From Pseudonocardiales bacterium (lineage in GTDB: Bacteria > Actinomycetota > Actinomycetes > Mycobacteriales > Jatrophihabitantaceae), in assembly GCA_030840415.1 (NCBI GenBank), contig JAVEEO010000057.1:1-10583 (forward strand): DNA of 10,583 bases. The letters run 5' to 3'. The notes below the pieces were generated by a model that worked only from the letters and a program-made list of their open reading frames with translations, searched no databases and was not told the DNA's origin. Each line of letters opens with the position of its first letter. The stretch's first letter is position 1. Below, one piece after another: positions 685-9,957 of this stretch. Made by a program: the position numbers and the translations under genes.

Positions 685-1743
685 ATGAACAGGCGCCGGT
701 GGTTCGTGACCCTGCCCCTCGGTGCGTGCGCCGCCGCGCTCAGCCTGCTCCTGCTCGGCATGGAGCCGGTCGGCGACGTCCGGACGGACAGCCAGCGCCG
801 GCCAGCCGGCAGTGCGCCTCCCACCACCAGGGCTCTCGGCCAGCCCTTCGCGACTCCGACGCCTTCGGCCACCGACCGGCCGACGGCGTCGGCTACGTCG
901 TCCAAGGCGACCAAGGCGGCCAAGGCGGCCAAGGCGGCCAAGGCGTCCAAGGCAGCCACCCCGAGCCGGTCTCGCACCCCGGAGTCCGCCCGGGCCGAGG
1001 CGGCTCCACCGATCAGCCGGGTGCCGGTCGATGGCCCGGGAATCCAGGCGGCGGCCGACTATGCGACCTCGCGCGGCTACCGGGTCGGGCTCGCGGTGCT
1101 CGACACCAGGACCGGCAAGCTCTGGGGCGCCAGCGAGCATGCGAGCCTGTTCGCCTCGGAGTCGGTGGTGAAGGTCTTCATCGCCACCCGGCTGCTGCTG
1201 GCCGGGCAGTTGACCGGCAGCGCCGCCGACACCGCCTTCCGGATGATCGCCCGGTCCGACGACGGGGCGGCCGACGCGCTGTACGGATACGCCGGTGGCG
1301 ACGACGTGCTGCCCTGGATCGCGGCGCACTACGGCATCGCCAACCTCGGAACGCCGCCCATCCGGGACGGCTGGTGGTCCAACACCCACATCAGCGCGGC
1401 CGGCCTGGTGCAGTTCTACGCCAAGGTGAAGGCCGATCCCGTCGTCTGGCCGTGGCTGTCCAAGGCGATGCATGCCGCCACCGGGTACGGCTCGGACGGC
1501 ACGTACCAGTTCTTCGGCCTCAAGCAGGCCGACCCGAACGCCGCCATCAAACAGGGCTGGGGCCAGGACGACGACGACTGGTCGGCGAGTTCTGACTTCA
1601 ACTCCACCGGCTTCGTCAACGGCGACCGCTATGCCGTGGCGATCCTGCTCAAGGGCCCGTCGTGGCAGTACCGCACCGGCGTCCCTGCCATGGTCAGTTC
1701 GGTGGCCCGCAGGCTGATGCCCGGCGGCGTACTGCGTCCCTAG
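685..1743 (+). CDS. Secreted beta-lactamase-fold serine hydrolase
   Basis: This 352-residue exported protein has three parts. An N-terminal signal or anchor (MNRRR, then a hydrophobic stretch to about residue 26) comes first. A low-complexity Pro/Thr/Ser/Ala/Lys linker follows (about 30-110), with a Lys-Ala tract at 74-91. The catalytic domain starts at about 115. It carries the active-site SxxK as S160-V-V-K163, an S191-D-D element where related proteins have SDN, and K289-Q-G in place of the KTG triad. These fit the class A beta-lactamase/DD-peptidase superfamily, in the branch of actinobacterial secreted hydrolases that are mostly not proven beta-lactamases. A role in cell-wall metabolism is inferred. 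C15 sits in an LGAC context, but inside the hydrophobic segment, so a lipoprotein is possible but doubtful. No clear ribosome binding site precedes the ATG at 685, yet no other in-frame start exists nearby. It converges on the biosynthetic operon with 22 bases between stop codons. Confidence 0.8.
   Translation: MNRRRWFVTLPLGACAAALSLLLLGMEPVGDVRTDSQRRPAGSAPPTTRALGQPFATPTPSATDRPTASATSSKATKAAKAAKAAKASKAATPSRSRTPESARAEAAPPISRVPVDGPGIQAAADYATSRGYRVGLAVLDTRTGKLWGASEHASLFASESVVKVFIATRLLLAGQLTGSAADTAFRMIARSDDGAADALYGYAGGDDVLPWIAAHYGIANLGTPPIRDGWWSNTHISAAGLVQFYAKVKADPVVWPWLSKAMHAATGYGSDGTYQFFGLKQADPNAAIKQGWGQDDDDWSASSDFNSTGFVNGDRYAVAILLKGPSWQYRTGVPAMVSSVARRLMPGGVLRP
901..954 (+). repeat. Tandem 9-bp repeat encoding Lys-Ala linker
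   Basis: Six consecutive 9-base units of the form NCCAAGGCN lie in frame in the serine hydrolase gene; three central copies are identical (GCCAAGGCG). They encode a K-A-A type tract (residues 73-90) in the linker between signal sequence and catalytic domain. Perfect in-frame copies suggest growth by replication slippage. The positive charge could help contact with cell-wall polymers, which is inference. Confidence 0.85.
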
Positions 1744-1759
1744 ATCGCCTGCGGAGAAA

Positions 1760-1796
1760 CACCGGTCAGGACAGGTAGTCCTCACATCCGCCGGTG
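1760..1796. terminator. Possible bidirectional terminator hairpin
   Basis: Between and overlapping the ends of two converging genes there is a nested inverted repeat. An outer arm CACCGG (1760-1765) pairs with CCGGTG (1791-1796). An inner arm AGGAC (1768-1772) pairs with GTCCT (1778-1782) around a five-base loop. It covers the last codons and stop of the amidinotransferase gene. There is no T-tract, which is common for actinobacterial terminators but leaves this call weak. Confidence 0.3.
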
Positions 1797-2914
1797 CGGT
1801 GGGTGTCCAGGGTGAAGCAGTGGAATCCGCCCCCGAACAGCCGCCGGTGCCGGTGCCGGACCGGGATGGTGGTGAAGCCTTCGGCGTCGAGCATCTTGCG
1901 GATGCCGGTGCAGTCCTGGTTGACCAGCACGGTGTCCTCGTCGACGGACAACACGTTGAGGTCTATGTAGGCGCTGGTCAGCACCATGTCGTCGTCGTCG
2001 TAGACCGGGAAGTCACCCGCGTCCGGCGGTGGCGGGATGAGGAACTTCCATGACCGCAGGGATTCTGGCAGCAGGTCACGCACCCCCTCGTGCCGGGCGA
2101 TGAAGACGCCGGGCTTGAGCGCCAACAGCATGCTGTCGATGTGGCTGTCGGCCATCCGGTAAACCCGGTGCAGGCGATAGCGGTCGCCGAGGTGGCGCTC
2201 CAGCCAGTCCGCCGCCATCCGGTGGTTCTGTTGAGCGACGTTGACGACGAGATCACGCCCCAGTCGCAGGATCTGTGCGCCGTCGATCATCATCTCCAAC
2301 CCGACGTCGAACGGGCTGGGCCGGGGATCGGCGATCGGCTCGGTGGGACCACCTTGCGTGGTCGAGACGTCACGGGCGTATGACAGGTCGAATGACATGT
2401 CGGTCAGCAACGGGCGAGGCATGGTGGTCCATCGCGCACCCGCCTCGTAGTAGCTCTGGAAGATGCCGGCAAGCAGGCGGGTCTCGAGGTAGCGGGAGCG
2501 CACCATGGGGGGCGTCTCGATGATTTCATCGCCCAGGATAAGGGTGTTGTCGCGAATGTTGAGTGCCGGTGTCGGCGCCACCTGCCATCCCAGGCCCGCG
2601 ACGACCGGTACGTCCGAAGGCAACCTCAGTGGCCGATGGACGGTGATTCCCAGTCCAGCGAGGGTTTCGGCGAGGTTCTCGACGTCTTCGTGGAGTTCCT
2701 CGGTATAGCGCTTCTTGATCTTCCAGCTTTCTGCGCTGTGGCTGCTGCCACTGGTTACCAGCCGCGGATAGGCCCAGTCACTCCGGATCCCGGTCAGGTT
2801 CTCGTGATGGAACAGTTCGAAGGTCACGTCCCGGTCGTGGGACAGGTAGTTCTCGGCGGAACCGACCACGATCTCACGCAGCGGAGTGAAATCGTCGTGG
2901 CTGTTGAGCTGCAT
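1766..2914 (-). CDS. Amidinotransferase (AGAT/StrB1 family), ketomemicin-type
   Basis: This 382-residue protein matches the arginine:glycine / inosamine-phosphate amidinotransferase family over its whole length. The catalytic triad is visible: Asp211 in IDGAQILRLGRD (equivalent to FDAAD in AGAT), His258 in SHID, and the nucleophile Cys366 in GGGFHC near the C-terminus. Family enzymes move the amidino group of L-arginine to an amine through a Cys-amidino intermediate, releasing ornithine. In ketomemicin biosynthesis the acceptor product I recall is amidino-arginine, the N-terminal residue of the pseudotripeptide; that assignment here rests on context. The ATG at 2914 follows a strong AGGAGAGGA ribosome binding site. 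It is the last gene of the operon, 58 bases after the MaoC gene, so it is the only member with a sizeable upstream gap. No tailoring domain is fused to it. Confidence 0.88.
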   Translation of the reverse strand: MQLNSHDDFTPLREIVVGSAENYLSHDRDVTFELFHHENLTGIRSDWAYPRLVTSGSSHSAESWKIKKRYTEELHEDVENLAETLAGLGITVHRPLRLPSDVPVVAGLGWQVAPTPALNIRDNTLILGDEIIETPPMVRSRYLETRLLAGIFQSYYEAGARWTTMPRPLLTDMSFDLSYARDVSTTQGGPTEPIADPRPSPFDVGLEMMIDGAQILRLGRDLVVNVAQQNHRMAADWLERHLGDRYRLHRVYRMADSHIDSMLLALKPGVFIARHEGVRDLLPESLRSWKFLIPPPPDAGDFPVYDDDDMVLTSAYIDLNVLSVDEDTVLVNQDCTGIRKMLDAEGFTTIPVRHRHRRLFGGGFHCFTLDTHRTGGCEDYLS

Positions 2915-2972
2915 CGCAGGGTCCTCTCCTACGCTAGTCAGGTGGGCTTGCTCGTATACCGCGTAGCCGGGC

Positions 2973-3533
2973 TCAGTAGCCGGCGCTCAGGTGCAGGTCG
3001 TTGTCCCTGGTAGCCACCAGGAAGCTGCGCTCGAACGTGAGCACCACCTCTCCGGTTGACTTGATCCCCGCGGTGCGGCAGTCCACGATGCCCTGCCCGG
3101 GGCGGCTGGCCGACAGCCGTTTGCCGGTGATTTCGCTTTCCGCGTACAGGGTGTCCCCCACGAACACCGGGTGGGTCAGGCGGATCCGGTCCCACCCCAG
3201 GTTGGCGATGGCACGGCCGCTGGTACTGCGTGCCGTCATGCCGCCGACGATGCTGAGAGTCACCAGGCTCGACACCAGCGGCTGCCCCCACGGACCCTCG
3301 GCGCAGAACGCGGCATCGATGTGCAATGGCGAGGCGTTCATGCTGAGCATGCTCATCAGGACGTTGTCCATCTCGGTGACGGTCCGGCCCGGGCGGTGCT
3401 CGATGACCGTTCCCACGAGCAGCTCCTCGTAGCAGAAACCGACCACCTCGCGATAACGGTTGGATCCCACTCTCCGGTAACCGCTGGGCTGCCCGTCCTG
3501 GGCGACCTCCTCGGTCGGAGGCGGCGTGGTCAC
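2973..3533 (-). CDS. ktmF: MaoC-type acyl-CoA dehydratase, ketomemicin-type
   Basis: This 186-residue hot-dog-fold protein has the MaoC/mesaconyl-CoA hydratase signature. The segment HRPGRTVTEMDNVL leads to the presumed catalytic pair Asp56 and His71 (in SPLHID). Next come RSTSGRAIANLGWD and HPVFVGDTLYAESE (121-134), then RPGQGIV. Relatives (re)hydrate branched malyl-type and fumaryl-type CoA esters such as beta-methylmalyl-CoA. Paired with the CitE-type aldolase two genes upstream, the expected step is dehydration of a 2-substituted malyl-CoA to the enoyl-CoA. The GTG start at 3533 overlaps the stop of the PLP enzyme gene (GTGA, 3530-3533), indicating translational coupling; its own ribosome binding site is poor. 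The first ~25 residues are a Pro-rich tail outside the domain. The symbol is from memory of the ketomemicin clusters. Confidence 0.82.
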   Translation of the reverse strand: MTTPPPTEEVAQDGQPSGYRRVGSNRYREVVGFCYEELLVGTVIEHRPGRTVTEMDNVLMSMLSMNASPLHIDAAFCAEGPWGQPLVSSLVTLSIVGGMTARSTSGRAIANLGWDRIRLTHPVFVGDTLYAESEITGKRLSASRPGQGIVDCRTAGIKSTGEVVLTFERSFLVATRDNDLHLSAGY

Positions 3534-4762
3534 AGCGTGGCCGTCAGTTCACGGACGTGGTCGGCGAACGTTGCCAGCCGCTCGTGGCTGATGTCGGATC
3601 GGAGCATTATCCGGATGCCCGCTTCGCCCCGCGGCACGATCGGGAAGAACACCGCGGAGCTGTAGAAACCACGTCGGTAGAGTTCGGCCGATATCCGCAC
3701 CGCCTGGTCCCCGTCGCCGACGGTGATCCGGCGGACCGGCAGGCCGTTGCCGGAGAACGAGGTAGGCAACAACTCGTCGAAGTACTCGACGTTGGCTTGC
3801 AGTTGGCGCTGCAAGCGCCCGAGTTCAGGCGAGCGGTGAATCGCCGCGCTGGCCAGTGATGCGCCGGCCAGGGCCACGCCCATATCCTGCGACCACCCCA
3901 GCGGCCCGCCGTGCCGGGCCAGCAATCCCGCGAGCCGGGGGTTGCCCAGCATTGCGAGGCCGCCTCCGGTCCCGAAACCCTTGCTGAGACTGGCAACGAT
4001 GATCGTCAGCTCGTTCATGGTCAGTTGCGACCGCACGAAACCCTCCCCGCGCTCGCCCATGAGCGATAGGGAATGCGAGTCGTCGATGAACAGGAACAAG
4101 CCGTAGCGATCCTGCAACTCCTGCAAGCCCTCCAGCGCAGCGGCGCCTCCCATCGAGTAGACCCCGTCTGCGATGTAGGCGACGTTGGGGTAGCGACGGC
4201 AGACGTCCTCCAGGTAGTCGAGGTCGTTGTGGGGCGAGGTGAGTACCAGGCTCTCGTCGGCGCAGATGGGCTTGACGTAGGTCATGCAGAAGTGACAGAA
4301 CCGGTCGAAGACCATCACTCGCGGGCCGCCGGGCGCCAAGTGGCCCGATGCCAGCAGCGGCAGAATACCCGCGGTCACGGAACTGCAGGATTGACCGAGC
4401 ACTGCCTGGGCGTCGAACAGGTCGCTCAGCTCTTCCTCGAGCCGTCCGAGCAGTCGATGCCGGATACGGGTGGTCGAATTGGCCAATCTGGTGGTACCAG
4501 CCTCACGCAGTGCCTCGATGGCGCCGTCGATGACGGCTGGGTGGTAGTTGATGCCGAGGTAGGCACAGGAGCACATGTTGGTGAACTTGTGATCGCTCTC
4601 GGACACCACGAAGTCATTGCTGGACTCGACACCCACCTCGATGCCGATCAGTCCGTGGTCCGCGGCGGCCTGCCAGACCGGATCGGCGGTCCGAACCATC
4701 TTCTCGCTGTTTCGATAGTGATGGGGACCTAGCACCTGTTGCTGGACATCTGTCTGGGTCAT
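3530..4762 (-). CDS. ktmB: Alpha-oxoamine synthase-like PLP enzyme, ketomemicin-type
   Basis: This 410-residue fold-type I PLP enzyme belongs to the glycine C-acetyltransferase / 8-amino-7-oxononanoate synthase family. The PLP-binding residues are visible: Asp227 and His230 in IDDSH, and the Schiff-base Lys261 in SLSKGFG. The N-terminal CSCAYLG (64-70) replaces the usual N-Y-L-G. The segments SPHNDLDYLE and IADGVYSMGG resemble, from memory, the subfamily that includes the aminotransferase-like domain of saxitoxin SxtA. Family chemistry is decarboxylative condensation of an acyl-CoA with an amino acid to give an alpha-aminoketone. Here that step would create the carbonyl-methylene peptide mimic. 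The ATG at 4762 follows GAGGAG five bases upstream and lies 19 bases after the aldolase stop. The amino acid substrate cannot be read by eye. The symbol is from memory. Confidence 0.87.
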   Translation of the reverse strand: MTQTDVQQQVLGPHHYRNSEKMVRTADPVWQAAADHGLIGIEVGVESSNDFVVSESDHKFTNMCSCAYLGINYHPAVIDGAIEALREAGTTRLANSTTRIRHRLLGRLEEELSDLFDAQAVLGQSCSSVTAGILPLLASGHLAPGGPRVMVFDRFCHFCMTYVKPICADESLVLTSPHNDLDYLEDVCRRYPNVAYIADGVYSMGGAAALEGLQELQDRYGLFLFIDDSHSLSLMGERGEGFVRSQLTMNELTIIVASLSKGFGTGGGLAMLGNPRLAGLLARHGGPLGWSQDMGVALAGASLASAAIHRSPELGRLQRQLQANVEYFDELLPTSFSGNGLPVRRITVGDGDQAVRISAELYRRGFYSSAVFFPIVPRGEAGIRIMLRSDISHERLATFADHVRELTATL

Positions 4763-4781
4763 CCTGGCTCCTCATGAGGCG

Positions 4782-5657
4782 TCACGTGTTGTCGGGAGAG
4801 CCGGCCGTCGAATCGGCCGGTACGAGAGGCTCGAACTCCTCCAGCAGTCGCCGGGAGGCGTCGAAGAAAGGCCGTCCCACCATCGAGCCGCCCACGGTGG
4901 TGATGCCCTGGCCGCTGCGCTCGGCGGCGGTGACGACCTGGTGCGCATGCTCGAGTTCCGCGGCGCCGGGTGAGAAGACCTCGTTGATGACCTCGACCTG
5001 CCGAGGGTGCAGAGCGATCTTGCCGCTGTAGCCGAGTGCCAGCGCGCACTCGGCCTCCCGACGTAGCAACGACAGGTCGGTCAGGTCGAACAGCGGTGAG
5101 TCGATCACCTCGATTTTCGCTGCTCGCGCGGCGTTGACCAGCAGGGACCGGGCATAGACCAGTGGTTCCCAGGCCAGTCCGATTCCCAGCGCCGCGGCGT
5201 AGTCAGCGGATCCGAAGATCACCGCGCGCAGCGGGGCCGAGGTGCTGGTGATCTCGGCAAGGCGCTCGAGCCCGCGTGGGGTCTCCATCACCGCCAGCAG
5301 TTCCAACTCGGGACAGCCATCGCCGAGGACTGCCTCGACGATCTCCAGATCCCGGGCAGACTCGACCTTCGGCACCAGCACGATGTTCGCCTTGACGGGA
5401 AAGTCCCGCAGTGCGAGCAGGTCGCGCAGGCCGGCCGGCTCGGTGACGGTGTTGATGCGCACCGCGCAGCGGGTCGGCGGGCACGCGCCGGCGAAGAAGT
5501 CGCGCGCCTTGAACCGCGCTTCCTCCTTGCGGGCCAGCGGGACGGAATCCTCCAGGTCGACCAGGCAGATGTCCGCGCCGGACTGGTAACAGTGGGCGTA
5601 CCGGTCTTCTGCGATCGCCGGAGTGCACAGCATCGAACGGCAGTAACGGGTGTACAC
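4782..5657 (-). CDS. ktmA: CitE/HpcH-type acyl-CoA aldolase, ketomemicin-type
   Basis: This 291-residue TIM-barrel protein of the HpcH/HpaI aldolase-citrate lyase beta family starts with the typical RSMLCTPA. It then shows VDLEDSVP (33-40), VRINT (CoA/substrate-binding Arg67), VMETPRG with metal ligand Glu125, GSADY with metal ligand Asp152, and GKIALHPRQ (212-220). Family members form or split malyl-CoA-type thioesters using Mg2+. The proposed role is the first step: aldol addition of a malonyl-CoA-derived nucleophile to a 2-oxo acid such as phenylpyruvate. The start is a GTG at 5657, one base after the reductase stop codon, with GGGAG upstream inside the reductase gene. An internal ATG at codon 9 would cut into the conserved opening strand. 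It is unlikely to be a citrate lyase subunit: no alpha or gamma subunit genes are nearby. The symbol is from memory. Confidence 0.87.
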   Translation of the reverse strand: MYTRYCRSMLCTPAIAEDRYAHCYQSGADICLVDLEDSVPLARKEEARFKARDFFAGACPPTRCAVRINTVTEPAGLRDLLALRDFPVKANIVLVPKVESARDLEIVEAVLGDGCPELELLAVMETPRGLERLAEITSTSAPLRAVIFGSADYAAALGIGLAWEPLVYARSLLVNAARAAKIEVIDSPLFDLTDLSLLRREAECALALGYSGKIALHPRQVEVINEVFSPGAAELEHAHQVVTAAERSGQGITTVGGSMVGRPFFDASRRLLEEFEPLVPADSTAGSPDNT

Positions 5658-5658
5658 C

Positions 5659-6639
5659 TCAATGCTCCCGGTTCACATCGATGAGGATCTTGCCCGAGGT
5701 GGTTCGGGCGGCCATTGCCGCGTGGGCGTCCCCCACCCCGGCAAGGGCAACGGTTCGGTCTATCCACGCGACCAACTGGCCACGCTTGGCCAGATCGAAG
5801 AGCTCTGCTGCCATGCCGGCCAGCAGCGTCCGGTTCTCGACCACGTGCCGCATCCAGAAGCCGGCGCAGCCGATCGACCGCTCGATCAGATCGTCCGTCG
5901 ACACCCGCACCGGTCCATACTGGTCACTGCCCCCATCAGCTGCTGCCCGCCAGCCGACGGTGACCAGCCGTCCGAACGGCGCCAGGCCGTCGAGTGCCGC
6001 CCGAGCCAGCCCGCCGCCGACGGAGTCCACGAAGAGGCCGACCCCGCCGCCGGAGGCATCGCGCAGCTGTTCGCCGAGATCGTCTGCCGCGGGATCGAGC
6101 ACGTGGTGAGCGCCGAGGTCGCGGAGCCGGGCGCGCTTGCCGACAGAGGAGGCCAGGCCGATCACCGGATGAGCGCCGTAGGCCAGCGCCAGCTGGATGG
6201 CCAGATGCCCGACCCCGCCAGCAGCCGCGGACACGCCAACGGCTTCACCGGAGCGCAGCCTTCCGGCAAGTATCAGCGCGCCATAGGCAGTGCTGCCCTG
6301 TTCCAGCAAGCCGACCGCCTGATCGTCGCTGAGGTGGTCGGGCAGCTCGACGGTGTACCGGTCCTCGGCAGCCACCACCTGCGCGTAACCGCCGCCCTCG
6401 CGCAACAGGACGGCCACCCGGCACCCGTCCGAGCGACGAACCCCCACGGCGTCGACGCCGAGCACGGCAGGAAGAGCCAACGGTTGGTACTGGCCGGAGC
6501 GCCGCTCCAGGTCGTCGTAGTTCACGCCGGCCAGCCGCACGTCGACCAGGCTCTGCCCCGCTGCTGCCAGCGGTTCCGGCAGCTCTTCGACTGCCAACAC
6601 CTCCGGGCCGCCGGTGCGGCGCATCACCACGGCTTTCAT
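5659..6639 (-). CDS. ktmC: NADPH:quinone oxidoreductase-like enoyl reductase, ketomemicin-type
   Basis: This 326-residue medium-chain dehydrogenase/reductase of the zinc-free quinone oxidoreductase branch opens with MKAVVMRRTGGPEVL and has AGVNYDDLERRSG. The nucleotide-binding motif is AAAGGVGHLAIQLA (138-151). The C-terminal region ends TTSGKILIDV, usual for the family. The zinc-ligand cysteines of alcohol dehydrogenases are absent. Such enzymes often reduce activated C=C bonds. In this operon the natural substrate would be the 2-substituted fumaryl-CoA made by the MaoC dehydratase, reduced to a succinyl-CoA derivative before condensation. Its ATG at 6639 overlaps the ligase stop as ATGA (6636-6639), showing tight coupling. 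The order of reduction versus condensation is inferred from memory of the ketomemicin work, not from the sequence. Confidence 0.85.
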   Translation of the reverse strand: MKAVVMRRTGGPEVLAVEELPEPLAAAGQSLVDVRLAGVNYDDLERRSGQYQPLALPAVLGVDAVGVRRSDGCRVAVLLREGGGYAQVVAAEDRYTVELPDHLSDDQAVGLLEQGSTAYGALILAGRLRSGEAVGVSAAAGGVGHLAIQLALAYGAHPVIGLASSVGKRARLRDLGAHHVLDPAADDLGEQLRDASGGGVGLFVDSVGGGLARAALDGLAPFGRLVTVGWRAAADGGSDQYGPVRVSTDDLIERSIGCAGFWMRHVVENRTLLAGMAAELFDLAKRGQLVAWIDRTVALAGVGDAHAAMAARTTSGKILIDVNREH

Positions 6640-8012
6640 CCGCTGCTCACCGGGAGTTCGGCCAGCCGGCCGTGCTCGGAATCGGTCGTGCCCGCCAGTT
6701 CGTCGAACAGGGAGAGCACCTGGGTCTGCATGGTCCGAGCGGCCGCCAGATCCGGGGCGACCACGCAGTAGGCAACGCTTCGGTCGGGCATCAGGGTCGA
6801 AGTGAGCACGACCCCGGTTCCGGTTGCCTTGTCGAAGGCCAGTCCGGCACCGGCAAGCTGCTCGACTGCGGCCGCGAACGAGGGCACCACCCAGTCGTGC
6901 AGTTCCATAATCACCCGCTGATCCCGGTGCTCCGCGGCAAGCAACCTGTCGTTGATGACGACGTGCAGGTGGGTGGAACCACTCATCCGGGCGTTCGTTT
7001 CGCTGATGAAGAGATCTCCTGCCGGCGTCAGTAGCGCATCGACGCTGAGATAACCGCGATAGCCGATCGCGTGATAGGCGCTGGCCAACGCCATTCCGAC
7101 TGCCACCAGCGCGCTTCGAGCAGCCAGGTTCAATACCTGCGGAGGAACGATCTCGCCGATGGGAAGCGGCGACATCAGGATCTCACCGACACCGACCGGT
7201 ACCGGACCGTCGTCGCCAACCAGGTACTCGCTGTACACGGTGTCGCAGCCGGTCAGGTAGTGCTCGACTATCAGCCGGTGCCGACCCCCTGCGGTGAGTC
7301 GATTCCAATGCTGGTCGAAGTAATCGCACACCGCTGACGCATCGGCAAGTACTGCCGAGGTGAACGCGCCGGCCGCTCGCACCCCGGCAACGGGACTCAG
7401 AATCTCGTTTCCATAACCGCCAGCGGCAAATTCCTGCTTGACGATCGCGCTGTTGCCCGCCGCGAGCAAGTCGCTGACCATGGCCTGCGCTTCGGCACGG
7501 CGGCCCGTGGCCAACCCTGCGACGAGGGGCACGCCTACCCCGGCCGCGATTGCCCGGAAGCACGCCTTGCTGTTGAGAAAGGCATCGCCGCCCTCAGCGC
7601 TGAAAGCGTGACCCGGCACCTGCAGGCCCACCGCGGCAGCCAGCCGCATCACGGGCACGTCCTTGTAGACGGCCAGCATCCGGTCGACACCTCGCTCCCG
7701 CACGACCGCTCGCACCTGCTCGCGGAAGCCGGCGTCGGCGATCCGGTCAGGGGTGAGGAGATCGGCGCCGAGCCCATCGGGGGGTGGGCACAGCACCAAC
7801 AGCGATTCCGGCTCGGTAGCGGTCAATCCGGTGACGTAGTCGCGGTAGTCGGCTGGAGGCTGGTATGGCAGGAGCAGTACGTCGCCAGCACCCGCGAACC
7901 ACAAGAGTCGCTGTGCCGCACACCCGCCGGAGCGCCGTTGGGCGGGGCTGAGAGCTACCAGTTCGCCTGCCATCTCCTCGGTTCGGCTGTTGCCGACGAT
8001 CAGGGTGCTCAC
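6636..8012 (-). CDS. PGM1-type ATP-grasp peptide ligase, ketomemicin-type
   Basis: This ~458-residue protein has a pre-ATP-grasp domain (about 1-125: STLIVGN at the start, a CAAQRLLWFAGAGDVLLLP segment) and an ATP-grasp domain. Likely ATP and metal ligands are K149, K192 (IVKQEF), E250 (IVEHYL), D325 (SVDALL) and E338/N340 in SETNARMSG. A ~100-residue C-terminal domain follows. This layout and the ETNARMSGSTHLH motif are those of ligases related to PGM1 of pheganomycin, which activate a guanidino acid carboxylate as acyl-phosphate and join it to a peptide amine. The neighbouring amidinotransferase fits a guanidino acid (amidino-arginine) substrate. I prefer the GTG at 8012, because GAGAGG (8021-8026) lies 8 bases before it. 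The in-frame GTG at 8021 would overlap that site. First gene of the operon. Confidence 0.85.
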   Translation of the reverse strand: MSTLIVGNSRTEEMAGELVALSPAQRRSGGCAAQRLLWFAGAGDVLLLPYQPPADYRDYVTGLTATEPESLLVLCPPPDGLGADLLTPDRIADAGFREQVRAVVRERGVDRMLAVYKDVPVMRLAAAVGLQVPGHAFSAEGGDAFLNSKACFRAIAAGVGVPLVAGLATGRRAEAQAMVSDLLAAGNSAIVKQEFAAGGYGNEILSPVAGVRAAGAFTSAVLADASAVCDYFDQHWNRLTAGGRHRLIVEHYLTGCDTVYSEYLVGDDGPVPVGVGEILMSPLPIGEIVPPQVLNLAARSALVAVGMALASAYHAIGYRGYLSVDALLTPAGDLFISETNARMSGSTHLHVVINDRLLAAEHRDQRVIMELHDWVVPSFAAAVEQLAGAGLAFDKATGTGVVLTSTLMPDRSVAYCVVAPDLAAARTMQTQVLSLFDELAGTTDSEHGRLAELPVSSG

Positions 8013-8020
8013 AACTGTCA

Positions 8021-8026
8021 CCTCTC
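8021..8026 (-). promoter_or_regulatory. Ribosome binding site deciding the ligase start
   Basis: The minus strand reads GAGAGG here, with 8 bases to the GTG at 8012. The alternative GTG at 8021 would use the same bases as its own start region, so this site argues for the shorter protein. Confidence 0.6.
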
Positions 8027-8054
8027 AAGGATGCGAACTGGACACTTCAGCGCA

Positions 8055-8060
8055 TTTATA
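8055..8060 (-). promoter_or_regulatory. Possible -10 element for the ketomemicin-type operon
   Basis: The minus strand reads TATAAA at this position, five of six matches to the sigma-70-type -10 consensus, unusual in such GC-rich DNA. A transcript would start near 8048, leaving about 35 bases before the preferred ligase start at 8012. No good -35 hexamer sits 16-18 bases upstream (TAGTGC at 17), so activator dependence or a false match are both possible. Confidence 0.35.
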
Positions 8061-8063
8061 CCG

Positions 8064-8204
8064 TTAGTCCCCATTGAGCACTAGAGGGATGTACGGGTTT
8101 TTCTGGTCGCCGGAGCACAGCGCCATGATCACTTCATCGCTGGCTGGCGGGAGCCTCCATGCGACCCGTCGGCCAGTAGCGGAGACCCGGCAACGGTTGC
8201 CCAT
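8064..8204 (-). CDS. Candidate 46-residue small ORF upstream of the ligase
   Basis: An ATG at 8204 opens a 46-codon frame ending with TAA at 8064-8066, 51 bases before the preferred ligase start and on the same strand. The peptide is basic at first (MGNRCRVSATGRR), has two Cys (5 and 30), and ends DQKNPYIPLVLNGD. No family was recognised. About 74% of codons end in G or C, lower than in the neighbouring genes, and it contains a rare CTA codon. No Shine-Dalgarno sequence precedes the ATG; a candidate promoter at 8225-8253 would give a very short leader. PGM1 itself acts on ribosomally made peptides, which makes a peptide gene here interesting. However, the ketomemicin ligase uses enzymatically made dipeptides, so this may be a chance frame. 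Confidence 0.2.
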   Translation of the reverse strand: MGNRCRVSATGRRVAWRLPPASDEVIMALCSGDQKNPYIPLVLNGD

Positions 8205-8219
8205 GGCGGCAAAGGGCTC

Positions 8220-8248
8220 TTGTCAATATATAAGCAGAATGTTACTTT
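8220..8248 (+). promoter_or_regulatory. Candidate promoter for the secreted Ser/Thr-rich protein
   Basis: TTGTCA (8220-8225) and TACTTT (8243-8248) are spaced by 17 bases, an acceptable vegetative-sigma arrangement. Transcription would start near 8255, leaving about 70 bases of leader before the GTG at 8326. The surrounding AT-rich sequence supports a promoter, but the -10 match is only three of six. Confidence 0.35.
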
Positions 8249-8253
8249 TTCAG
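8225..8253 (-). promoter_or_regulatory. Candidate leftward promoter
   Basis: On the minus strand CTGAAA (8253-8248) and TATATT (8230-8225) are 17 bases apart, nine of twelve matches to the consensus. A start near 8218 would place the 46-codon ORF and then the ligase operon downstream. It overlaps the rightward candidate promoter, so the two would compete if both are real. Confidence 0.3.
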
Positions 8254-8325
8254 CCCGCTCCTAGTAGATTCTTAGGTTTCACAGGTTTGAGGTATTTATC
8301 CATCCCTAGTCCGAGGAGAACCCCC

Positions 8326-8934
8326 GTGAGAATCAGGTCCGAAAGAGGCGTCCACCCGCGCCGGCTGCGCAGAACCATGACCGCCGTGGCCGCGGCTGTC
8401 GGCATCAGCGCCGGCATGCTTGCCATCCCGACGTCGGCATATGCCATCCCGCTCGGCGGCTGGTGCTACGACCAGTGGTACGACGTATCGAGCGTCGGCA
8501 GCGTCACCCAAACGCCGCTGATCCCGACCAGGAGCTTTCAGAACAGCAGCAGCAGCACCACGGTCACCTGGAGCGAGAGCTACACCAACTCCACCACGTA
8601 CCAATCCACCTACTCGACCACCACCACGTTCTCCGGCGGCATCGACCTCGGGATCATCAAGATCGGAGTGAACTCGGCGCAGACGAGGACCACCCAGACC
8701 AGCATCACCGTGACCACGACCTCGTCCTTCAGCGCGCCGGTCCCGCCGCTCACCACCGCCTACGCGGACTACGGCACGTACAAGCTGCAGACCTCCGGGA
8801 CGTACAACGAGGAGAAGTACGGCTGCGATAACCACGACTTCGCCACGTTCAAGAGCGGCGCGCTGACCGCGTACAGCCTGACCAGCGTCGGTTGGCACTA
8901 CTGGGACTCGAGCGGCGGGAACAGCAACCTGTAA
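8326..8934 (+). CDS. Secreted Ser/Thr-rich protein, unknown function
   Basis: This 202-residue exported protein belongs to no family I can name. A long actinobacterial signal peptide (Arg-rich start, hydrophobic 18-34, cleavage likely after TSAYA, residue 40) leads to a mature ~162-residue protein. It has only two cysteines (47 and 167), probably one disulfide. Residues ~78-102 and ~119-136 are dominated by Thr and Ser alternating with hydrophobic residues, flanking a more apolar stretch GGIDLGIIKIGV (104-115). Such a strand-hairpin-strand pattern is seen in aerolysin-type beta-pore proteins, but this is only a resemblance. I chose the GTG at 8326 because AGGAG lies about 8 bases upstream and it is followed by a normal signal peptide. 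An upstream in-frame ATG at 8074 would add 84 residues of non-coding character. It is divergent from the biosynthetic operon; no functional tie is shown. Confidence 0.75.
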   Translation: MRIRSERGVHPRRLRRTMTAVAAAVGISAGMLAIPTSAYAIPLGGWCYDQWYDVSSVGSVTQTPLIPTRSFQNSSSSTTVTWSESYTNSTTYQSTYSTTTTFSGGIDLGIIKIGVNSAQTRTTQTSITVTTTSSFSAPVPPLTTAYADYGTYKLQTSGTYNEEKYGCDNHDFATFKSGALTAYSLTSVGWHYWDSSGGNSNL

Positions 8935-9039
8935 TGCGCTCCTGATCCGGCCGTCTCGTCACCGCGCGAGGTACTGAGCGGGGGCGAGGCGGCTGGCGGT
9001 GGTGCGGTTGATCGGCCTCCCGCTCGACAACGGCCTCCA

Positions 9040-9057
9040 ATCCCGCTAGGGCGGGAT
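9040..9057. promoter_or_regulatory. Perfect inverted repeat between secreted-protein and SDR genes
   Basis: ATCCCGC (9040-9046) and GCGGGAT (9051-9057) form a seven-base-pair stem with a TAGG loop, 43 bases before the SDR start. It could be a T-less terminator for the upstream gene or an operator in the SDR leader. The sequence does not decide between them. Confidence 0.4.
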
Positions 9058-9099
9058 AGCGTCGTTGTCGATTGGTCAGCGAGGCTGGAAGGAAGCACG

Positions 9100-9957
9100 A
9101 TGCCCTCATCGGTGGGTGCGGTGCTGGTGACCGGTTGCTCGTCAGGCATCGGACGGGCCACCGCCTTGTTACTGGCAGACCGCGGGCACACGGTCTACGC
9201 GACGGCTCGCCGTCGGGCTGCGCTGGCCGATCTGGCGGCGGCCGGCTGCCGCACTCTGGCACTGGATGTCACCGACGAGCAGTCCCGGCAGGCCGCCGTC
9301 GACACCGTGGTCGCCGAAGCGGGTGCGGTCGGCGCGTTGGTCAACAACGCCGGCTATTCCCAGTCCGGCGCGCTGGAAACCCTGGATCTCGACGAGGTCC
9401 GCCGGCAATTCGAGACCAACGTCTTCGGGCTGCTGCGGATGTGCCAACTGGTGCTGCCCGCCATGCGCGACCGCGGCGCCGGGCGGATCGTCAACGTCTC
9501 GTCCATGGGAGCGAACTTCACCTTTCCCGGCGGCGGCTCGTACCACGCGACCAAGTACGCGGTCGAGGCGCTGTCGGATGCGCTGCGCTTCGAGGTCGCC
9601 GGCTTCGGAGTCGGTGTCACGGTCATCCAGCCGGGAATCATCCGAACGTCGTTCAGCGAGCGGGCGGTCGCCGAGGTACCCGGGCCGGGCCGCCGCCCCG
9701 GGCCGTACGACGAGTTCAACCGCAGCGTGGCCGAGGCCACCCGCGAGGTCTACCAGCGCGGTCCGCTGGCCAGGCTGGGCGGTGAGCCAGAGACGGTGGC
9801 GAAGGTGATCGCCCGCGCCATCACCGCGCGGCGGGCGCCGGTGCGGATCCGGGTCACGCCGTCGGCGCACTACCTCGTGGCCCAGCACCGCTTGCTGCCG
9901 GCCCGGGTCTGGGACCGGTTCCTCCGCTCGCAGTTTCCGACCCCGGCCCGCTTCTGA
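9100..9957 (+). CDS. Classical SDR family oxidoreductase
   Basis: This 285-residue short-chain dehydrogenase/reductase has all classical landmarks. TGCSSGIG (11-18) is the Rossmann glycine motif, with ARR following strand 2 (36-38), which favours NADP(H). D56 lies in LALDVTD, NNAG is at 82-85, and the catalytic tetrad is Asn107, Ser135, Tyr148 and Lys152 (in SYHATKYAVE). IQPGIIRT is at about 195-202. The C-terminal extension of about 30 residues resembles the group of SDRs with long basic tails often called 17-beta-hydroxysteroid dehydrogenase-like. The substrate cannot be inferred. The ATG at 9100 follows GGAAGGAAG about 5 bases upstream. It is flanked by unrelated secreted-protein genes, so it probably forms its own transcription unit. 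Confidence 0.88.
   Translation: MPSSVGAVLVTGCSSGIGRATALLLADRGHTVYATARRRAALADLAAAGCRTLALDVTDEQSRQAAVDTVVAEAGAVGALVNNAGYSQSGALETLDLDEVRRQFETNVFGLLRMCQLVLPAMRDRGAGRIVNVSSMGANFTFPGGGSYHATKYAVEALSDALRFEVAGFGVGVTVIQPGIIRTSFSERAVAEVPGPGRRPGPYDEFNRSVAEATREVYQRGPLARLGGEPETVAKVIARAITARRAPVRIRVTPSAHYLVAQHRLLPARVWDRFLRSQFPTPARF

What the first reader, a model, noticed from the sequence alone, without database searches (positions are those of the whole stretch)
1766..8021. Complete six-gene ketomemicin-type pseudotripeptide cluster
Seen: six same-strand genes, mostly overlapping or within 20 bases of each other, encoding an ATP-grasp ligase, zinc-free reductase, CitE-type aldolase, alpha-oxoamine synthase-like PLP enzyme, MaoC dehydratase and amidinotransferase, each with intact catalytic residues. 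Known (from memory): ketomemicin clusters contain these six functions and make pseudotripeptides with a carbonyl-methylene bond in place of an amide plus amidino-arginine. Inference: this window holds an intact relative, without regulator or transporter, whose side chains may differ. Gene order may also differ from the described clusters.
Basis: partly seen in the sequence, partly recalled or inferred. Interest (0 to 1): 0.85.

Follow-up and report, generated by a model that had tools for sequence, protein, structure and literature searches.

The report
Ketomemicin-type cluster with borrowed amidinotransferase
This actinobacterial DNA carries an intact six-gene set for making a small protease-resistant peptide mimic of the known ketomemicin kind, but the enzyme that caps its first amino acid seems to have been taken from a different, uncharacterised peptide pathway, so the product may differ from the known ones.

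Summary
The six genes are there as described: an intact, tightly packed, minus-strand operon D-F-A-B-C-E. Aldolase, PLP enzyme, dehydratase, reductase and PGM1-type ligase are 45-78% identical to those of the Salinispora tropica CNB-440 cluster. In trees A, B, C, D and F fall with proteins of ketomemicin (ktm) loci, apart from A/B/C trios, paralogues and other ligases. Gene order is not new: six Micromonospora-type loci share it; a same-genus genome has the operon at another site. The amidinotransferase (1766-2914) is 66-79% identical to enzymes in nine non-ktm loci but only 51-55% to Salinispora/Streptomyces KtmE and 32-36% to Micromonospora/Kitasatospora KtmE, and nests with the non-ktm enzymes (100/100; AU test only p = 0.040). 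So the ketomethylene machinery is ordinary ktm, while the amidinotransferase was probably recruited from elsewhere. Predicted product: an N-amidino pseudotripeptide with a ketomethylene bond and possibly a new N-terminal residue. The chemistry is inferred, not shown.

The parts
6636..8021 (-). KtmD: PGM1-type ATP-grasp peptide ligase (461 aa), first gene of the operon
   Evidence: PreAtp-grasp and PGM1_C domains; PGM1 3wvq at 3e-86; 61% to G003, 45% to S. tropica KtmD; in the ktm-side ligase clade, apart from four ligases of non-ktm loci, 100*
5659..6639 (-). KtmF: MDR-type (zinc-free) reductase (326 aa)
   Evidence: ADH_zinc_N/PIG3-type; 74% to G003, 62% to S. tropica; tree separates it and the other ktm-locus reductases from five other reductases (99*)
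4782..5657 (-). KtmA: CitE/RipC-like aldolase (291 aa)
   Evidence: HpcH_HpaI 5e-31; below the RipC and CitE equivalog cut-offs; 70% to G003, 65% to S. tropica; in a 27-row clade 99* apart from trios and paralogues
3530..4762 (-). KtmB: PLP-dependent alpha-oxoamine synthase-like C-acyltransferase (410 aa)
   Evidence: NCBIfam PRK07505 516 bits against 137 for bioF; 75% to S. tropica KtmB; in the 97* set that holds the Salinispora and five Micromonospora-type KtmB
2973..3533 (-). KtmC: MaoC-fold dehydratase (186 aa)
   Evidence: MaoC 6e-21; RipB-like but below cut-off; 85% to G003, 78% to S. tropica; in a 29-row clade 96* apart from trios
1766..2914 (-). KtmE-position amidinotransferase (382 aa), of a non-ktm lineage
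   Evidence: Relative of 1bwd and arginine:glycine amidinotransferase; 66-79% to amidinotransferases in nine non-ktm loci, 52% to S. tropica KtmE, 34-36% to Micromonospora-type KtmE; in a 24-row clade with the nine, 100/100

Best explanation
A probably working ketomemicin-type (ktm) operon in an actinobacterium, perhaps of the Jatrophihabitantaceae. Inferred route, from the published pathway as I recall it (not tested here): KtmA joins an aryl-pyruvate to a malonyl-CoA-type unit, KtmC dehydrates, KtmF reduces, and KtmB condenses the resulting benzylsuccinyl-type CoA thioester with an amino acid by decarboxylative Claisen chemistry, giving a pseudodipeptide with CO-CH2 in place of CO-NH. The amidinotransferase puts an amidino group from arginine on an amino acid, and KtmD ligates this to the pseudodipeptide. 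Shown here: all six genes are intact and constrained; five group with ktm proteins and the order is the Micromonospora-type one. Inferred from trees: the sixth, the amidinotransferase, was recruited from a separate PGM1-like-ligase pathway. The CO-CH2 half is therefore expected to be conventional (C-terminal Phe/Tyr type), and the N-terminal residue is the part most likely to differ.
For: intact operon; same order in G003 and six Micromonospora-type loci; identities to S. tropica, whose genome is recognised by its exact length; A, B, C, D, F with ktm-locus proteins; motifs kept; dN/dS 0.09-0.31; flanking genes syntenic with two same-genus genomes, so the contig most likely belongs to this genus; amidinotransferase lineage.
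Against: No product, expression or enzyme data. AU rejection of one clade for Salinispora, Streptomyces and window-type KtmE is only p = 0.040, and the group was named after a first tree. Ten of the 24 rows of the key clade have unknown gene context, and inside its 22-row core the branching is weak (82/57, 85/49); the direction of transfer rests mainly on L210 and L209 branching outside. The pairing of window and G003 is weak or absent in A (84), B (0) and C. The ktm-side clades of A, C and F also hold loci in which I saw no full D and E. The S. mobaraensis and Micromonospora ATCC 39149 clusters were not identified by name.
Confidence: 0.85

Rival explanations
1. All six genes descend together from one ktm ancestor; the non-ktm amidinotransferases were taken from this ktm lineage, not the other way round.
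Against: Two non-ktm loci branch outside the core in turn (L210, then L209; 100/100, 95/90, 100/100) with the window inside; 9 of 9 such loci show no A, B, C or F match.
Confidence: 0.12
2. The genes belong to a different pathway with the same chemistry (for example an arphamenine-like dipeptide, or an itaconate/citramalyl-CoA type catabolic pathway), not ketomemicins.
For: A and C resemble RipC and RipB; the best solved relatives of B are deposited as 8-amino-7-oxononanoate synthases (278 bits) and that of A as a citrate lyase; A/B/C trios without D, E, F exist; F-A-B-C also occurs beside a PKS-NRPS.
Against: A and C are far below the RipC/RipB cut-offs; ligase and amidinotransferase lie in the same operon; A, B and C fall with full ktm clusters, apart from the trios.
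Confidence: 0.08
3. A binning artefact or decayed cluster.
For: The assembly is fragmented (569 contigs, 85.6% complete, 4.25% contaminated; probably a MAG), and the window is one whole contig.
Against: Glyoxalase, serine-hydrolase and SDR genes match G002 and G003 of the same genus in relative order and at 79-82% DNA identity; no internal stops; dN/dS 0.09-0.31.
Confidence: 0.03

Closest known systems
Micromonospora-type ktm loci (order D-F-A-B-C-E; G326, G570, G533, G588, G626, G634)
   Same: Same six functions, same order, all on one strand; A, B, C, F 59-78% identical
   Different: Amidinotransferase only 34-36% identical and of another deep clade; ligase 46-50%. Of the six, only G533 is named (Micromonospora cathayae, by equal contig length with P0043); four share S. 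tropica's genus code, two only its family code
Ketomemicin C cluster of Salinispora tropica CNB-440 (L051)
   Same: D-F-A-B-C block in the same order; B 75%, C 78%, A 65%, F 62%, D 45%
   Different: There the amidinotransferase gene is divergent and upstream; its protein is 52% identical and outside the window's 24-row clade
Streptomyces-side A-B-C-D-E-F clusters (Streptomyces sp. I05A-00742, Actinacidiphila acididurans, by equal contig lengths; probably the ketomemicin B type)
   Same: Same six functions; B 64-67%, C 75-78%
   Different: Order and amidinotransferase clade differ; E 54-55%
Non-ktm loci with PGM1-like ligase + amidinotransferase, usually a P450 and an APH-like kinase (L202-L210; Saccharothrix sp. 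ALI-22-I and Actinacidiphila soli among them, by equal contig lengths)
   Same: Amidinotransferase 66-79% identical
   Different: No KtmA, B, C or F match; ligase only about 28-38% identical to the window's
Pheganomycin ligase PGM1 (3wvq)
   Same: Ligase family and domains
   Different: No ketomethylene genes; joins peptides to a guanidino phenylglycine (recalled)

Membership tests
ketomemicin (ktm) clusters | Six genes: aldolase, PLP C-acyltransferase, dehydratase, ATP-grasp ligase, amidinotransferase, dehydrogenase (as given in PMC11943689) | tested here: met
ketomemicin (ktm) clusters | PLP enzyme, aldolase and dehydratase with ktm-locus proteins, not with primary-metabolism families or A/B/C trios | tested here: met
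   Aldolase clade 99* and dehydratase clade 96* (both also hold seven loci without a full D and E in the stretch fetched); PLP 95* (holds two such loci)
ketomemicin (ktm) clusters | Ligase on the ktm side of the PGM1-type family | tested here: met
   apart from four ligases of non-ktm loci (100*)
ketomemicin (ktm) clusters | Reductase with ktm-locus reductases | tested here: met
   99* against five other reductases
ketomemicin (ktm) clusters | Amidinotransferase inside a KtmE clade of characterised-type clusters | tested here: not met
   KtmE of known-type clusters is itself not one clade (Micromonospora/Kitasatospora apart at 100/100), so I do not treat this as defining for the cluster family
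ketomemicin (ktm) clusters | Gene order of a type found in other ktm loci | tested here: met
   D-F-A-B-C-E as in L053-L058 and L139
ketomemicin (ktm) clusters | Product: N-amidino pseudotripeptide with a ketomethylene bond | not testable with these tools
   No metabolite data
non-ktm PGM1-like-ligase/amidinotransferase loci | P450 and APH-like kinase nearby, no KtmA/B/C | tested here: not met
   The window has A, B, C; none of the ten window proteins scanned is a P450 or kinase
itaconate-degradation RipB/RipC | NCBIfam equivalog cut-offs (340 and 375 bits) | tested here: not met
   190.9 and 229.6 bits

The most novel reading that the evidence does not exclude
The N-capping slot of ketomemicin clusters is modular.
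Probability: 0.4. Interest if true: 0.6.

Novelty: new variant of a known kind. Interest (0 to 1): 0.42.

Why it matters
Ketomethylene pseudopeptides are protease-resistant peptide mimics, and PMC11943689 names ketomemicins and arphamenines as the only natural ones known. A lineage that keeps the bond-forming module but has a different capping enzyme points to untested N-terminal chemistry, gives a natural experiment on which enzyme sets which residue, and extends the clusters to a further actinobacterial family. The non-ktm loci that share the amidinotransferase look like another guanidino-peptide pathway that I could not identify.

Tried and rejected
Explanations from primary metabolism (CitE, RipB/RipC, BioF) were rejected on cut-offs and trees. 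Contamination was rejected on syntenic flanks. A simple empty site in G002 was considered and qualified: its roughly 200 bases between serine hydrolase and SDR read, at the end, as the tail of a tachylectin-domain gene that is whole in G003 (L119:5936-7648), so the spot is variable rather than pristine. Promoter and terminator scans gave no more than shuffles (1 against 0.6 and 2 against 2.4, window 1600-9150); Rfam at gathering scores and the tRNA search of the window gave nothing. Substrate prediction from motif differences (for example KtmD residue 284) was not pursued to a claim. Paper searches for the non-ktm amidinotransferase pathway: one search listed 15 papers, of which I opened for this purpose none; one search found none. 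Jatrophihabitans with 'biosynthetic gene cluster' gave six listings, none opened; the 11 papers holding 'ketomemicin' have no Jatrophihabitans in their titles. Only eight papers were opened: PMC11943689 (parts 1-3 of 4), and passages of PMC11906848, PMC9239090, PMC9096227, PMC4712552, PMC10367076, PMC7317104 and PMC11151856. No structure prediction was run. The original ketomemicin papers (Ogasawara 2016, Kawata 2017) were seen only as reference-list entries; their pathway is recalled.
Full report
What is there. The window is one whole contig (C248) of a 569-contig assembly, 85.6% complete and 4.25% contaminated, probably a MAG. Six intact minus-strand genes run from 8021 to 1766: ligase (D), reductase (F), aldolase (A), PLP enzyme (B), MaoC dehydratase (C), amidinotransferase (E), with two 4-base overlaps and gaps of 1, 19 and 58 bases. 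Family and structure-sequence searches give the expected functions.

Is it ketomemicin-type? PMC11943689 (parts 1-3 of 4 read) describes ktm as these six functions and sorts ktm-like clusters of 28 non-Salinispora Actinomycetota into four synteny types. One genome in the tool, G223, has exactly 5,183,331 bases, the length given for S. tropica CNB-440 in PMC4712552 (one passage), so its locus L051 serves as the ketomemicin C reference. Against it the window is D 45%, F 62%, A 65%, B 75%, C 78%, E 52% (tblastn). S. tropica has E divergent; four Streptomyces-side loci have A-B-C-D-E-F; Kitasatospora types have A-B-C with F, D and E on the other strand. Seven further loci (L008, L010, L061, L062, L065, L120, L121) have A, B and C, some with F, but no full D and E in the stretch fetched.

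Distribution. KtmB relatives occur in 2 of 24 genomes of the window's family at E <= 1e-50; at E <= 1e-80 in 14 of 397 genomes drawn from the order and in 33 of 354 of the family of G326; at E <= 1e-90 in 38 of 394 of the Streptomyces-side family. The last three counts include A/B/C trios that are not ktm clusters.

Trees. With A/B/C trios, CitE-like, BioF-like and other reductase rows as contrast, the window's A, B, C and F lie with ktm-locus proteins. In larger sets D lies in a 45-row lineage (97*), mostly unnamed, on the ktm side and apart from four ligases of non-ktm loci, and B lies in the 97* set that also holds the Salinispora and five Micromonospora-type KtmB. Weak spots: the pairing of window and G003 has support 84 in A, 0 in B and is not recovered in C; A, C and F clades also include loci without a full D and E; all trees but one search are quick searches. 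P0235, named Streptomyces marincola, falls in the Streptomyces set of B; PMC9096227 (passages) reports a ketomemicin B3/B4 cluster in that species, which ties the set to the B type.

The amidinotransferase. The first small tree, with ktm members only, put E beside Salinispora and Streptomyces KtmE. A wide search changed that: 1,684 relatives at E <= 1e-30, the 120 listed being 72-85% identical. Flanks of twelve loci with such enzymes were fetched. In nine (L202-L210, E 66-79%) there is also a PGM1-like ligase, about 28-38% identical to the window's D, and in none of the nine a match to A, B, C or F; the other three (L211-L213, E 52-62%) show none to A, B or C among called genes. Of 13 loci compared, eight share a gene family whose L204 and L202 members are called P450s or fall in it, and seven an APH-like kinase family; only members from L204 and L202 were given to the family libraries. 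In the quick tree of 93 rows (60 of the 120 listed proteins: the first 40 and every fourth after) and in the careful tree of 39 rows (13 listed proteins, chosen by me), the window's E falls in the clade of these non-ktm enzymes (100* and 100/100), with L210 and L209 branching outside the core that holds the window. Ten of the 24 rows of that clade have unknown context, and the branching inside the core is weak. Salinispora, Streptomyces and Micromonospora/Kitasatospora KtmE are elsewhere; the first two are not resolved from each other. Holding Salinispora, Streptomyces and window-type KtmE together (12 rows against 7 non-ktm rows) costs 39.8 log units, AU p = 0.040: moderate, and the group was named after a first tree. 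Since S. tropica's A, B, C and D sit among Micromonospora-type proteins while its E does not (100*), a swap in Salinispora is supported the same way.

Local evolution. Window and G003 have the operon at different spots of one neighbourhood: between serine hydrolase and SDR in the window, and on the far side of the glyoxalase gene in G003; G002 has it at neither. KtmB has no match at 1e-50 in 7 of 9 genomes of the genus, two of the seven under 90% complete. In the E tree window and G003 fall in two sub-clades, each with kin of unknown origin.

Mechanism. The chemical steps are recalled from the published pathway (Kawata 2017, not opened). PMC9239090 and PMC11906848 (passages) say only that KtmB is a PLP-dependent Claisen-type enzyme of ketomemicin biosynthesis. 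The residues that I take as catalytic (B K261, D228, H230; E D211, H258, C366; A R67, E125, D152) are kept in the aligned ktm proteins; their role is recalled from the families.

Verdict. A real, intact ktm-type cluster, ordinary in five genes and in order, with a new amidinotransferase lineage. Interest moderate.

Noticed in passing
window 8074-8934 (+): Divergent gene for a likely secreted, Ser/Thr-rich protein with no Pfam hit up to E = 1; it lies with the operon between the serine hydrolase and SDR genes, and tblastn at 1e-8 found no match in any locus listed, G002 and G003 included.
   Followed up: partly
L202-L210 (for example L204:9161-14001): A recurrent PGM1-like ligase + amidinotransferase locus, mostly with a P450-family gene (8 loci) and an APH-like kinase-family gene (7), in some with an NsdA-type regulator (seen in L202, L204) or an Asp/Asn-hydroxylase-like gene (3): an apparently separate guanidino-peptide pathway that I could not match in two paper searches.
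   Followed up: partly
L008:7152-19220 (Actinokineospora terrae): F-A-B-C ketomethylene genes beside a PKS-NRPS hybrid (KS-AT-ACP-luciferase-like monooxygenase-C-A, running off the locus) with no KtmD or KtmE match in the locus: the pseudodipeptide unit may feed an assembly line.
   Followed up: partly
L052, L064, L066-L070, L131-L134: A/B/C trios (B 43-50% identical) with no D, E or F match in the stretch, including a second locus in S. tropica: perhaps a sister pathway.
   Followed up: no
L060, L063 (family code of S. tropica): Decayed-looking ktm clusters: L060 has a D fragment, B lacking its start, C and E; L063 has part of F and B, a split A, and C. Partial clusters are reported in Salinispora (PMC11943689).
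   Followed up: no
P0053 (Kitasatospora sp. NPDC004799): 777-aa protein with both reductase and PGM1-ligase domains, a KtmF-KtmD fusion by its Pfam list.
   Followed up: no
P0297, P0306 (Archangium, Myxococcus): KtmB relatives 60% identical in myxobacteria, outside Actinomycetota.
   Followed up: no
window KtmD residue 284 (motif ILMSP): About three quarters of the sampled ktm-side ligases have Glu/Asp here (my count 62 of 83 rows); the window and several of its kin have Ser or Ala, three Kitasatospora-type rows Arg: a possible specificity residue.
   Followed up: no
L119:5936-7648 and G002 (L116:15525-15724): An alpha/beta-hydrolase-like protein with tachylectin repeats is whole in G003, looks like a remnant in G002, and the window has the ktm operon there instead: a variable spot.
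   Followed up: partly
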